A DNA stretch of 55,790 bases from Bacteroidaceae bacterium (lineage in GTDB: Bacteria > Bacteroidota > Bacteroidia > Bacteroidales > Bacteroidaceae), in contig JAFXQT010000102.1 in assembly GCA_017526905.1 (NCBI GenBank), positions 1 to 55,790 of the forward strand. The letters are read 5' to 3'. The position numbers and the translations under genes were made by a program. Shown in pieces: positions 1,233 to 6,168 of the stretch; position 1 is the stretch's first letter, and the number at the start of each line of letters is the position of its first letter. The notes under the pieces are model-generated. The model made no database searches and was not told the origin of the DNA. It saw only the letters and a program-made list of their open reading frames with translations.

Positions 1233-2129
1233 TCAGCCTCCCACTTTGGCGATGATGCCATGGTCGAGGAACTGAGAGATACAACGCTCTAAGGTCTGTT
1301 CCGACGGAACGCTCATGGCTATGCCTTCGGGGTTGTAGGTGCTGCCGCGCCGTACATGCTTGTCGCGCCCCATATCATGATACGGAAGCAAGTTCACGCC
1401 CATAAATGCCGGCTTGGCACCGTGATTGTTTGTCTCCTGTATGAAGCGCGCTGTGGCTTCGATGTTTGCCTCGTCGGCATTGACGCCCTCGATGAGCGGG
1501 ATTCGCACCTGGACGGGGACACCGATATTGGCGAGATGTTTATAGTTCTGCAAGATGAGTGCGTTGGACACGCCCGTGAACCGGCGATGTTTATCTGGGT
1601 CCATCACCTTCATGTCAACAAGCAGGAGGTCGGCATTTCCCGCCACCATGTCAACAATTTCTGTCTTGGCATAGAGTGTTGTATCCACAGCACATTTGAT
1701 GCTTCTCTGACGACAAGCACTCAGCAGCGGCATGACATGCTCGTATTGCATCAGTGGCTCGCCTCCGCTCAACGTCACGCCCCCGCCACTATCGGTCATG
1801 ATGTCGTGCTCTTTCTCTATCTCAACCATCAGTTCCTCCAGGGTCCATTGGCGTCCGCAAGTCTCCAGTGCCATTGTTGGGCAAGCCTCTACCCTCTCGG
1901 GCGCAAGGAGGTGTTGGCTCTCGCCGATGTAGTCTGCCTGTCTTGGGTGAATGCCACAACAGTTGCAGCCGATGCACTTCTTTTGCTTGAACAGCACTTC
2001 CGGCTGAGTGCGCCATGATTCGGGGTTGTGACACCACACGCAGCGGAGCGGACACCCCTTCAAGAAAATGGTGGTCCGGATTCCCGGACCATCATTTATC
2101 GCATATCTCTTTATGTCGAATACAATCAT
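1233..2129 (-). CDS. Glycyl radical enzyme activase (radical SAM), partner of the HypD-like enzyme
   Basis: This 298-residue radical-SAM protein should install the glycyl radical on the enzyme encoded just upstream, using S-adenosylmethionine and a [4Fe-4S] cluster under anaerobic conditions. The N-terminus carries the radical-SAM cysteines in GCPLRCVWCHNPES (C26, C30, C33). It is followed by a ferredoxin-like insert with further cysteines (C52, C55, C57/C58, C83), as expected for activases of the non-PFL glycyl radical enzymes. The SAM-binding motif GGGVTLSGGEPLMQ is present. The start is 5 bases after the stop of the HypD-like gene, so the two are surely co-transcribed and the partner is clear. 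The length is usual for the family. Confidence 0.92.
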   Translation of the reverse strand: MIVFDIKRYAINDGPGIRTTIFLKGCPLRCVWCHNPESWRTQPEVLFKQKKCIGCNCCGIHPRQADYIGESQHLLAPERVEACPTMALETCGRQWTLEELMVEIEKEHDIMTDSGGGVTLSGGEPLMQYEHVMPLLSACRQRSIKCAVDTTLYAKTEIVDMVAGNADLLLVDMKVMDPDKHRRFTGVSNALILQNYKHLANIGVPVQVRIPLIEGVNADEANIEATARFIQETNNHGAKPAFMGVNLLPYHDMGRDKHVRRGSTYNPEGIAMSVPSEQTLERCISQFLDHGIIAKVGG

Positions 2130-2134
2130 CTCCC

Positions 2135-4544: not shown

Positions 4545-4775
4545 ATTGGGCATTCGTCATTATTCATTCATTCTTCGCAAGCGAAGCCTTCCTTCTTGAA
4601 GTGTCAAGCGCCCCTGGGGCGAGCGCGGGGCAAATCCGTTATTCTTCGCAAATTGGTCATCGCGGGAAAACCGCGATGCACACGGATTGGGCTTCGGTTT
4701 GCTTCATTCGTCATTCATCATTCATCATTAGTCATTAGTCATTCATCATTCGTCATTCGTCATTAGTCATTCGTC
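4545..4775. repeat. Degenerate ATTCGTCATT repeat cluster between hypD and the Xaa-Pro peptidase gene
   Basis: The 218-base gap 4535-4752 is filled by tandem copies of a ten-base unit (ATTCGTCATT, ATTAGTCATT, ATTCATCATT), mostly at 4545-4572 and 4700-4772, running a few codons into the 3' end of the peptidase gene. Between the two blocks are palindromes such as CTTCGCAAGCGAAG (4563-4576) and CGCGGGAAAACCGCG. The same unit occurs inside two coding genes of this window (10613-10719, 14374-14406). No promoter is seen here. Confidence 0.8.
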
Positions 4776-6168
4776 CTTCCTTTGCCTGATACACTTCCTC
4801 TATGGTCATAGGCTTCTTGATATTGCCCAGCAACTTGACCTGCCCGTCGGGCATCACGGCGTAGTTCAGTTCATTGCGCAGTCCCGTGAAGTTGCGCCAG
4901 GGCTGCAGTTTGTCATAGCAGATGAAATCGGTGAACTGGTGCTCGGCCTGCCACTTGTCCATCAGCTCCGGAATGAAATAGATGCCTGGCTCTACAGTGA
5001 ATACGAATCCCGGTTCCAGCGGTCGTGCCAGGCGCAGGCTCTTGAAACCGAATTGCGTGCTTTTCTGCTGGCCATCCAGATAGCCCACATATTGCTCGCC
5101 CAGATTCTCCATGTTGTGTACGTCCAAGCCCACCATGTGTCCCAGTCCGCAGGGGAAGAACAGCGCATAGGCACCGATGCGCGCAGCTTCGGCTGGGTCG
5201 CCCTTCATCAGACCGATGTCTTTCATGCCTTCGCAAATCTTCGTGGCGGCTGCCATGTGTGCATCGCGGAAGGGAACACCGACGGCCAGCGTATCCACTG
5301 CGGCATAGAATGAGGCCAAATGAATCTCATAAATCACCTTCTGCCTATCCGTGAAGCGCTCGCCCACAGGCATAGACGACGAGAGGTCGCCGGCATAGTG
5401 CGATTTCGTTTCAGCGCCGGCATCCAGCAGGAAGATGTCGCCTTCACGCAGCTCATGGATGAAGCCGTGGTTGTGCAGCACCTGCCCTTGCACCGTGGCG
5501 ATGGTGGGGAAAGCCAATGCGTTGCCATGTCGGCAAGCCACTTCCTCCACCGCTGCGGCCACCTGCGATTCGTGAATGCCGGGCCGCACGGTACGGTAGG
5601 CAGCCAGGTGCATCTCTGTGCTCAGGTCCACGCTCTGCTCTATAAGGCCTATTTCTTCAATATCTTTGTGGTTGCGCTGCGCAACGATGGCTTTAATGAA
5701 AGGTACGCTGGCGCGTGAGGGCTGTGCAGAAGGCTCGATGCCCAACAGTTCCCACAGCCACACGCGGTGGTCGCCGCGATAGGGCGGCAGGAAATGGATG
5801 GGCTGATGCTTGGCCTGGGCCTGGTCGATATAAGCTTTGAGGGCGCTCATGGGCCGCGTGTCCGTGATGCCGAATGCGGCGGCGCGTTCGTGTAGCGTGG
5901 GCATGGTACCCGTCCACACGATATCATCAATGGTCAGCTCATTACCGAACACCACTACCCTATCCTCGTCCACGTCGATAATAGCGGCCAAGTCGGGGCT
6001 GTCCATTCCGATGAAATAAAGGAAAGTCGAGTCCTGACGGAAGCGGTATGTGTTGTCGGCATAGTTCATGCCCACTTCAGCGTTCCCGAGCAGCAGCAGG
6101 AGTCCGCTGCCCATGTCTGCTTGCAGCCGTTTGCGGCGGCGCACGTAGCTCTCTGTCTTGATATGCAT
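4753..6168 (-). CDS. pepP: Xaa-Pro aminopeptidase, M24B family
   Basis: A 471-residue aminopeptidase P-type enzyme that cuts the bond before proline (or hydroxyproline) at peptide N-termini. The N-terminal creatinase-like domain spans about 1-165, and the pita-bread metallopeptidase domain follows. All five metal ligands can be placed: D249 (LLDAGAE), D261 (YAGDLSSSMPVG), H344 (GLGHMVGLDVH), E393 (TVEPGIYF) and E433 (GLRNELNYAV). There is no signal peptide, so it works in the cytoplasm. It is the first gene of a run with the HypD-like enzyme and its activase, separated by 218 bases of repeats. The pairing suggests use of Xaa-Pro and Xaa-Hyp peptides, for example from collagen. A TATATTTG promoter element lies upstream. 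Confidence 0.92.
   Translation of the reverse strand: MHIKTESYVRRRKRLQADMGSGLLLLLGNAEVGMNYADNTYRFRQDSTFLYFIGMDSPDLAAIIDVDEDRVVVFGNELTIDDIVWTGTMPTLHERAAAFGITDTRPMSALKAYIDQAQAKHQPIHFLPPYRGDHRVWLWELLGIEPSAQPSRASVPFIKAIVAQRNHKDIEEIGLIEQSVDLSTEMHLAAYRTVRPGIHESQVAAAVEEVACRHGNALAFPTIATVQGQVLHNHGFIHELREGDIFLLDAGAETKSHYAGDLSSSMPVGERFTDRQKVIYEIHLASFYAAVDTLAVGVPFRDAHMAAATKICEGMKDIGLMKGDPAEAARIGAYALFFPCGLGHMVGLDVHNMENLGEQYVGYLDGQQKSTQFGFKSLRLARPLEPGFVFTVEPGIYFIPELMDKWQAEHQFTDFICYDKLQPWRNFTGLRNELNYAVMPDGQVKLLGNIKKPMTIEEVYQAKEGRMTNDE

What the first reader, a model, noticed from the sequence alone, without database searches (positions are those of the whole stretch)
1233..6168. Hydroxyproline/Xaa-Pro peptide use module: Xaa-Pro peptidase, HypD-like enzyme and activase
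Seen: the glycyl radical enzyme has C443, E445, G774 and further residues at a constant nine-residue offset from recalled C. difficile HypD, and it is flanked by an Xaa-Pro aminopeptidase and an activase. Known: HypD makes P5C from trans-4-hydroxyproline, an amino acid almost unique to collagen and plant cell-wall proteins. Inferred: the three genes let this Bacteroidales use Xaa-Hyp peptides. The pairing of HypD with a dedicated aminopeptidase P, in place of the more usual P5C reductase, would be a new layout.
Basis: partly seen in the sequence, partly recalled or inferred. Interest (0 to 1): 0.75.

Follow-up and report, generated by a model that had tools for sequence, protein, structure and literature searches.

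The report
Hydroxyproline-peptide-to-glutamate gene module in Bacteroidales
A Prevotella-like bacterium carries, in one stretch of its genome, genes that appear to cut peptides rich in hydroxyproline (a building block of collagen and plant cell-wall proteins), remove the hydroxyl group with a radical enzyme and turn the product into glutamate, among them a peptidase of an unassigned type.

Summary
Window 2135-4534(-) encodes a hydroxyproline dehydratase (HypD): 1139.6 bits with the curated model (cut-off 1100), an ungapped match to C. difficile HypD at a constant offset of nine, and all 13 radical and substrate-site residues kept, as in the 78 relatives aligned. An activase follows after 5 bp; an M24 Xaa-Pro peptidase precedes.

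Upstream on the same strand lie a P5C dehydrogenase (17236-18861) and a lipoprotein zinc peptidase, LIPO (16319-17170), without a family match over cut-off. In relatives these form a compact P5CDH-LIPO-M24-HypD-activase run; here, and in one relative examined, four sugar genes are interposed. The missing P5C reductase is thus answered by an oxidative outlet to glutamate; two same-genus genomes have ProC there instead. LIPO (56% identity or more) is in 23 of 45 HypD-positive and 2 of 156 HypD-negative genomes; M24 is less exclusive, and on another contig than HypD in 11 of 23 genomes.

Verdict: new layout of a known pathway with one unassigned peptidase family; peptidase specificities are inferred. 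HypD in Bacteroidales is known.

The parts
1233..2129 (-). radical-SAM glycyl radical enzyme activase (HypD activase by position and best equivalog); CxxxCxxC present; shortened auxiliary ferredoxin part (by eye)
   Evidence: TIGR02494 302 bits (over cut-off 174.35), NF043069 287.2 (best equivalog, below its cut-off of 425); starts 5 bp after HypD
2135..4534 (-). [quoted passage not shown] C443 (thiyl), E445, G774 (glycyl radical)
4535..4779 (.). 218-bp M24-HypD gap (4535-4752) plus the 3' end of M24; holds an array of about 11 copies of a 7-bp unit (4704-4779)
   Evidence: the Bacteroidales-type promoter pattern searched for (recalled) gave no match here
4753..6168 (-). M24 peptidase with AMP_N domain (Xaa-Pro/Xaa-Hyp aminopeptidase or prolidase); metal ligands D249, D261, H344, E393, E433; R379 aligns with human prolidase R398 (my count back from E412)
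6335..9937 (-). DUF5107-TPR protein, part of the interposed cassette
10001..11338 (-). sugar porter MFS transporter, interposed cassette
11335..14019 (-). GH2, exo-beta-1,4-galactosidase-like (NF049890 1134.2 bits, below its cut-off of 1500), interposed cassette
14133..16316 (-). GH35 glycoside hydrolase, interposed cassette; starts 2 bp after LIPO
16319..17170 (-). LIPO: 283-aa protein with a lipobox-like start (by eye), H171-E172-x-x-H175 and E221; no Pfam or NCBIfam match over cut-off
17236..18861 (-). P5C (L-glutamate gamma-semialdehyde) dehydrogenase, TIGR01236 755.8 bits (cut-off 613.6)
19006..21483 (-). second GH2 glycoside hydrolase, same strand, 144 bp upstream of P5CDH; relation to the module unclear

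Best explanation
The locus is a hydroxyproline-peptide utilisation module. A lipoprotein zinc peptidase (LIPO) cuts Hyp/Pro-rich protein outside the cytoplasm; the M24 peptidase frees Hyp from Xaa-Hyp peptides in the cytoplasm; HypD, made radical-bearing by its activase, dehydrates Hyp to P5C; the P5C dehydrogenase oxidises P5C to glutamate. Shown here by sequence: identities, order, strand and co-occurrence of the genes, and full conservation of the HypD substrate site. Inferred from the families: the HypD and P5CDH reactions. Inferred only from position and weak similarity: that LIPO and M24 act on Hyp-containing peptides, and that the source is plant Hyp-rich glycoprotein rather than collagen.
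For: HypD: NF043068 over cut-off; ungapped match to 6vxc, 934 bits, against 394 to HplG and 508 to the best choline lyase; 13 of 13 radical and substrate-site residues in 79 of 79 sequences, window included. Ten of the 13 were changed one by one in the HypD structure paper: eight variants lost activity and two (Y450F, T645A) fell by two to three orders (PMC7077986, passages). P5CDH: TIGR01236 755.8 over 613.6. Module: P5CDH-LIPO-M24-HypD with the activase next in G010 and G017 and 2.4 kb on in G015; the same order with activase in L009, L019, L034, L041, L064 among others; all of P5CDH, LIPO, M24 and AE in 14 of 80 held loci; LIPO and M24 within 300 bp on one strand in 30 of the 36 loci with both. 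Same genus, 37 genomes: M24 (over 50% identity) in 9 of 11 HypD+ and 0 of 26 HypD-; LIPO and P5CDH (85% or more to the query used) in the same 6 of 11, and 0 of 26. Family sample: LIPO at 56% identity or more in 23 of 45 HypD+ against 2 of 156 HypD-. Proline dehydrogenase: no match in the own genome or in G010, G015, G017; in G003 and G016 it lies in an open frame of 1056 and 1224 aa, with a weak aldehyde-dehydrogenase match in the same frame. In five of 13 further hypD stretches looked at, proline genes or proline-type peptidases lie near: ProC (G098), PutA (G077), proB- and proA-like genes (G185), S37 peptidases (G060, G056).
Against: No assay. 30 of 80 hypD loci show none of M24, LIPO, P5CDH. 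In the family sample, of 23 genomes with HypD and M24, 8 have them within 300 bp, 11 within 3.5 kb, one at 13 kb and 11 on different contigs; contig breaks of draft genomes may account for some of these. In G016 LIPO and P5CDH lie about 74 kb from HypD and M24 is on another contig. M24 relatives occur in 44 of 156 HypD-negative genomes, among them G120, same genus, 97% complete, 78% identity. Eight of the 13 further hypD stretches showed no proline-linked neighbour that I recognised. In this window four sugar genes split the unit. The activase scores below the HypD-activase cut-off, as do the two relatives' activases tested. No promoter or transcript data. Fisher tests are not corrected for shared ancestry, and the sets overlap: contigs of G003, G010, G015, G017, G018 and G138 have the lengths of the L002, L005, L017, L018, L013 and L029 contigs.
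Confidence: 0.68

Rival explanations
1. HypD plus activase is the only functional unit; M24, LIPO and P5CDH are general proline-peptide and amino-acid genes that lie nearby by chance or for loose clustering.
For: 30 of 80 loci lack all three; M24 and HypD on different contigs in 11 of 23 genomes; M24 relatives in 44 of 156 HypD- genomes; a 218-bp gap between M24 and HypD here.
Against: LIPO co-occurrence 23 of 45 against 2 of 156; compact runs in which the M24 and HypD matches touch (L039, L043); P5CDH, LIPO and HypD coincide in 6 same-genus genomes.
Confidence: 0.15
2. The module mainly serves proline-rich peptides (LIPO, M24), and HypD is a side branch that salvages the Hyp fraction.
For: LIPO and M24 stay together where HypD is on another contig (G201, G189, G203, G081, G244, G231); of 20 HypD+ genomes with both, 11 have LIPO and M24 within 600 bp.
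Against: P5CDH without a proline dehydrogenase match in the own genome and G010, G015, G017 could not serve proline oxidation; LIPO at 56% or more is almost confined to HypD+ genomes.
Confidence: 0.14
3. The glycyl radical enzyme has another activity: HplG-type C-N cleavage of hydroxyproline, or another eliminase.
For: Same superfamily; a Hyp-cleaving GRE, HplG, exists (its function is recalled).
Against: HplG (7vua) 394 bits against 934 for HypD; all HypD substrate residues kept; next NCBIfam equivalog 576.8 against 1139.6.
Confidence: 0.03

Closest known systems
HypD / HypD activase / P5C reductase of Clostridioides difficile and gut Clostridiales (PMC7077986: Introduction and passages seen; Levin 2017 and Huang 2018 not held)
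   Same: Same GRE with the same substrate residues; activase adjacent; P5C as the product
   Different: P5C dehydrogenase in place of P5C reductase in the run; an M24 peptidase and a lipoprotein metallopeptidase joined to it; Bacteroidales
HypD of Bacteroidota (PMC11574389, passages seen: Firmicutes and Bacteroides; PMC7815924, passages seen: hypD homologues enriched in Bacteroidaceae, and Hyp raises growth of B. thetaiotaomicron and B. fragilis)
   Same: Same enzyme family and use of Hyp in the same phylum
   Different: The passages seen name no peptidase or P5CDH gene partner
Prolidase / aminopeptidase P (M24B; human PEPD, PepP); PMC7815924 (passage) names a C. difficile M24 Xaa-Pro prolidase, CD3442, raised in vivo beside collagen breakdown
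   Same: M24 plus AMP_N; all five metal ligands; counterpart of prolidase R398 (PMC8438212, passages seen)
   Different: Only 146.8 bits to prolidase; a clade apart from the second M24 of the genome; role in Hyp release not tested
ATLF/M34-type gluzincins, whose Pro-Pro endopeptidases cut Pro-Pro bonds (that PPEPs belong to this fold is recalled; their activity is in abstract starts listed)
   Same: HExxH with a Glu in a YFAEA motif 46 residues on; 19 of 34 members match ATLF at E up to 0.1
   Different: Best E 1.8e-4 and the window protein itself no match; below the gathering score in the two cases where it is shown; no fold model available
Bifidobacterium / Xanthomonas systems for arabinose on plant Hyp-rich glycoproteins (PMC7263609, PMC6085000: search listing and abstract starts only)
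   Same: Plant Hyp-rich glycoproteins as target (for this module: hypothesis)
   Different: They take the arabinose; this module would take the Hyp peptide itself

Membership tests
HypD (NF043068) | score over the curated cut-off | tested here: met
   1139.6 against 1100; margin small
HypD (NF043068) | thiyl Cys, CXE Glu and radical Gly | tested here: met
   C443, E445, G774; 79 of 79 sequences
HypD (NF043068) | Hyp-site residues F152 R156 H160 D278 K326 S334 D339 F340 Y450 T645 | tested here: met
   all present in the window protein and in 79 of 79; residues named in PMC7077986 (passages)
HypD (NF043068) | makes P5C from trans-4-hydroxy-L-proline | not testable with these tools
   needs assay
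HypD activase (NF043069) | score over the curated cut-off | tested here: not met
   287.2 against 425, though it is the best equivalog; L032 and L034 relatives 291.7 and 332.2
HypD activase (NF043069) | CxxxCxxC radical SAM motif, gene next to hypD | tested here: met
   motif in the translation; 5 bp gap
P5C dehydrogenase (TIGR01236) | score over the curated cut-off | tested here: met
   755.8 against 613.6
M24B Xaa-Pro peptidase | M24 and AMP_N domains, five metal ligands | tested here: met
   ligands by alignment and motif
aminopeptidase P as against prolidase | substrate length selectivity | tested here: inconclusive
   best solved match is human prolidase and R398 is kept, but the second M24 of the genome has an Arg there too
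ATLF / M34 metallopeptidases (for LIPO) | Pfam PF07737 gathering score | tested here: not met
   17.1 against 27.4 for L032; window protein no match at E 0.1
ATLF / M34 metallopeptidases (for LIPO) | HExxH plus downstream Glu | tested here: met
   H171, E172, H175, E221 invariant in 34 of 34 rows
ATLF / M34 metallopeptidases (for LIPO) | fold | not tested
   structure prediction switched off

The most novel reading that the evidence does not exclude
LIPO founds an undescribed metallopeptidase family whose job is to cut Hyp-rich plant glycoproteins (extensins, arabinogalactan proteins). In Prevotella-like bacteria it feeds the HypD-P5CDH pathway. In another genome of the family sample (G193; by length and neighbours probably more) a related domain, about 41% identical, is fused to a GH97 glycosidase beside GH43 and GH127, the family of beta-L-arabinofuranosidases, so that sugar coat and Hyp backbone would be taken apart by one locus. 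The glycosidases interposed in this window would be the same idea in another form. Rumen Bacteroidales would then use the protein, not only the glycans, of plant cell walls as a source of glutamate.
Probability: 0.3. Interest if true: 0.72.

Novelty: new variant of a known kind. Interest (0 to 1): 0.52.

Why it matters
HypD is described as one of the most abundant glycyl radical enzymes of the healthy human gut (PMC7077986, Introduction, citing Levin 2017), but how bacteria free Hyp from protein, and what non-Clostridial carriers do with P5C, was not covered in the passages I could read. This locus offers candidate genes for both steps, a P5C outlet to glutamate that differs from reduction to proline, and an unassigned peptidase family with a testable substrate class. 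Prevotella communis E15-14 (L032) has LIPO-M24-HypD-activase in a complete genome and is a named strain for the tests; no P5CDH lies within the 8 kb on either side held there.

Tried and rejected
Rejected: other GRE families (scores). Rejected: that M24 is found only with HypD. Rejected: M24 as a proven prolidase on the basis of the R398 counterpart, because the second M24 of the genome also has an Arg there. Led nowhere: a Bacteroidales-type promoter pattern (recalled), 3 matches against 1.8 expected; tRNA genes in the window, none; single-sequence PDB search with a relative's lipoprotein (L032), seven weak hits, E 0.045 to 0.99, to designed assemblies and aldolase fusions. The own proC lies on contig C76 in two overlapping pieces in different frames, below cut-off; whether it is an assembly error or a decayed gene is unknown and it was left as it is. 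Literature: ten searches listed no paper that describes this layout in what I saw of listings and passages, but Levin 2017 and Huang 2018, the two most likely to show hypD neighbourhoods, are not held, so priority cannot be claimed.
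Full report
What is there. The window is contig C43 of a 2.8-Mb, 79% complete genome. Its nearest HypD relatives in named genomes are Bacteroidales and Prevotella assemblies, many with ruminant-stomach sources in their titles. The PFL-like family has one match in the genome, this protein.

HypD. The 799-aa protein scores 1139.6 bits with the curated HypD model, cut-off 1100, next equivalog 576.8. Against solved structures the best match is C. difficile HypD, 934 bits, 784 residues without a gap; the best choline lyase has 508 and HplG 394. 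The 13 residues checked, which the HypD structure paper names for radical transfer or substrate contact (PMC7077986; Introduction and passages read), are all present, and identical in 79 of 79 aligned proteins: the window and 78 of the 80 named loci, two (L031, L037) giving no full HypD ORF in my caller. The margin over the curated cut-off is small, but the substrate site is unchanged.

Activase. It follows HypD after 5 bp. It is a glycyl radical enzyme activase over the subfamily cut-off, with HypD activase as best equivalog but below that cut-off, 287.2 against 425; two relatives behave alike. It varies much more than HypD: over 1891 pairs of 62 sequences the mean identity is 61% against 86%.

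Relatives' neighbourhoods showed two more recurring genes, and both are in the window on the same strand: a P5C dehydrogenase at 17236-18861, 755.8 bits with TIGR01236, cut-off 613.6, and 65 bp after it a 283-aa lipoprotein, LIPO, at 16319-17170, with HExxH and a downstream Glu invariant in 34 of 34 aligned rows. Between LIPO and M24 lie GH35, GH2, a sugar porter and a DUF5107-TPR protein. G003, same genus, has this order too, plus a sulfatase between M24 and HypD; G010, G015 and G017, same genus, have the compact order P5CDH-LIPO-M24-HypD, with the activase directly after HypD in G010 and G017 and about 2.4 kb on in G015 (in G003 the stretch taken ends within HypD, but L002, a contig of the same length, has the activase next). 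The four sugar genes are thus an interposed cassette.

How regular is it. With at least 4.5 kb on both sides the figures are 30, 27, 13 and 41 of 46. M24 is directly upstream within 300 bp in 34 of 77 loci with enough sequence. LIPO and M24 are within 300 bp on one strand in 30 of 36 loci that have both. In 37 same-genus genomes, 11 with HypD (G015 in two joined matches, G019 and G030 in pieces at contig ends), M24 over 50% identical is in 9 of 11 and 0 of 26, LIPO in 6 of 11 and 0 of 26, P5CDH in the same 6.

In the family sample of 201 genomes, 45 have HypD, seven of them only a form 52-53% identical to the window's. LIPO was matched in 36; 25 of these at 56% identity or more, 23 with HypD and 2 without (G143, G229; 84% and 70% complete); the other 11, at 39-43%, are all without HypD: nine lie in frames of 909-1054 aa, G235 in one of 228 aa, G165 in one of 477 aa. 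M24 at E up to 1e-140 is looser: 23 of 45 HypD-positive and 44 of 156 HypD-negative genomes; at 63% identity or more, 17 against 7, G120 (same genus, 97% complete) among the seven. Of the 23 genomes with HypD and M24, 8 have them within 300 bp, 11 within 3.5 kb, one at 13 kb and 11 on different contigs; of 20 HypD-positive genomes with LIPO and M24, 11 have them within 600 bp, 15 within 3.6 kb, the window's own at 10 kb, 4 on different contigs.

The peptidase. The genome has a second M24 of the same build, 41% identical. A tree of 76 M24 proteins puts that copy and 19 others on one side of a 100/100 branch and the 47 hypD-linked ones with nine more on the other. Those nine also come from HypD-bearing genomes; most M24 genes of HypD-negative family members are not in the tree. 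All metal ligands are kept; the Arg that holds Gly-Pro in human prolidase (PMC8438212, passages) is present, but the second copy also has one, so prolidase or aminopeptidase P stays open.

P5C outlet. HypD makes P5C. In gut Clostridiales a P5C reductase is encoded near HypD (PMC7077986, Introduction). Here the run has a P5C dehydrogenase. Proline dehydrogenase has no match in the own genome, G010, G015 and G017, and in G003 and G016 it is in a long frame of the PutA kind, so the separate P5CDH most likely serves HypD; the genomes are 73-92% complete, so absence is not certain. In G031 and G098, same genus, a ProC takes the place before M24-HypD. Of 13 further hypD stretches, five show proline-linked neighbours: ProC (G098), PutA between activase and HypD (G077), proB- and proA-like genes after the activase (G185), S37 peptidases after HypD (G060, G056); in the other eight (G039, G043, G050, G053, G058, G059, G158, G174) I recognised none, mostly by eye.

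LIPO. It matches nothing in Pfam or NCBIfam over a cut-off. 19 of 34 members match ATLF, a gluzincin family, at E up to 0.1, best 1.8e-4; 12 match M90. I recall that Pro-Pro endopeptidases share the ATLF fold. In three looked-at genomes of the family sample (G193, G092, G198) the domain is the C-terminal part of a 906-921-aa protein; in G193 that protein is a GH97 glycosidase beside DUF6055, GH43 and GH127 genes. GH127 holds beta-L-arabinofuranosidases, one of them from a bifidobacterial cluster for Hyp-rich glycoprotein sugars (abstract starts in the listing). This is the basis of the novel case; it is suggestive only.

Verdict. The finding is real, and better than stated in one respect, weaker in another: in relatives it is a five-gene module with an oxidative P5C outlet and an unassigned peptidase, but the M24 link alone is not exclusive and HypD is not always beside it. 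HypD in Bacteroidota is known (PMC11574389, PMC7815924, passages). New variant of a known kind.

Noticed in passing
window 4704-4779, 10613-10650, 14039-14101, 14374-14405: Arrays of a 7-bp unit (AATGACG-like) at the end of M24 and in the M24-HypD gap, inside the MFS and GH35 reading frames and between GH35 and GH2; a relative's activase (L002) carries a similar-looking in-frame stretch. Possibly a repeat that expands or enters coding genes.
   Followed up: partly
window 1233-2129 and activases of L002-L081: The activase is far less conserved than HypD (61% against 86% mean pairwise identity), and by eye its auxiliary ferredoxin part is shortened in the window, L005 and L032 against two full motifs in L018, L034, L072.
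   Followed up: partly
L158 1497-11007 (G193): LIPO-like domain fused to GH97, with DUF6055, GH43 and GH127 genes alongside: a candidate locus for Hyp-rich plant glycoprotein.
   Followed up: partly
L166 (G000 contig C76, 31141-31924): proC of the own genome appears in two overlapping pieces in different frames, just before a proA-like gene (by eye).
   Followed up: no
L168 8551-9615, L174 7758-9041: S37 (PS-10) peptidases lie after HypD in two other Bacteroidales families.
   Followed up: no
L077, L079, L080: An M64 peptidase joins (L077) or replaces (L079) LIPO between P5CDH and M24 in horse-gut Bacteroidales; L080 has it before M24 too, but is cut in P5CDH.
   Followed up: no
17 of the 80 loci L002-L081, and L186: A second, longer M24 peptidase (Creatinase_N type, about 590-600 aa) lies near hypD, mostly after the activase.
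   Followed up: partly
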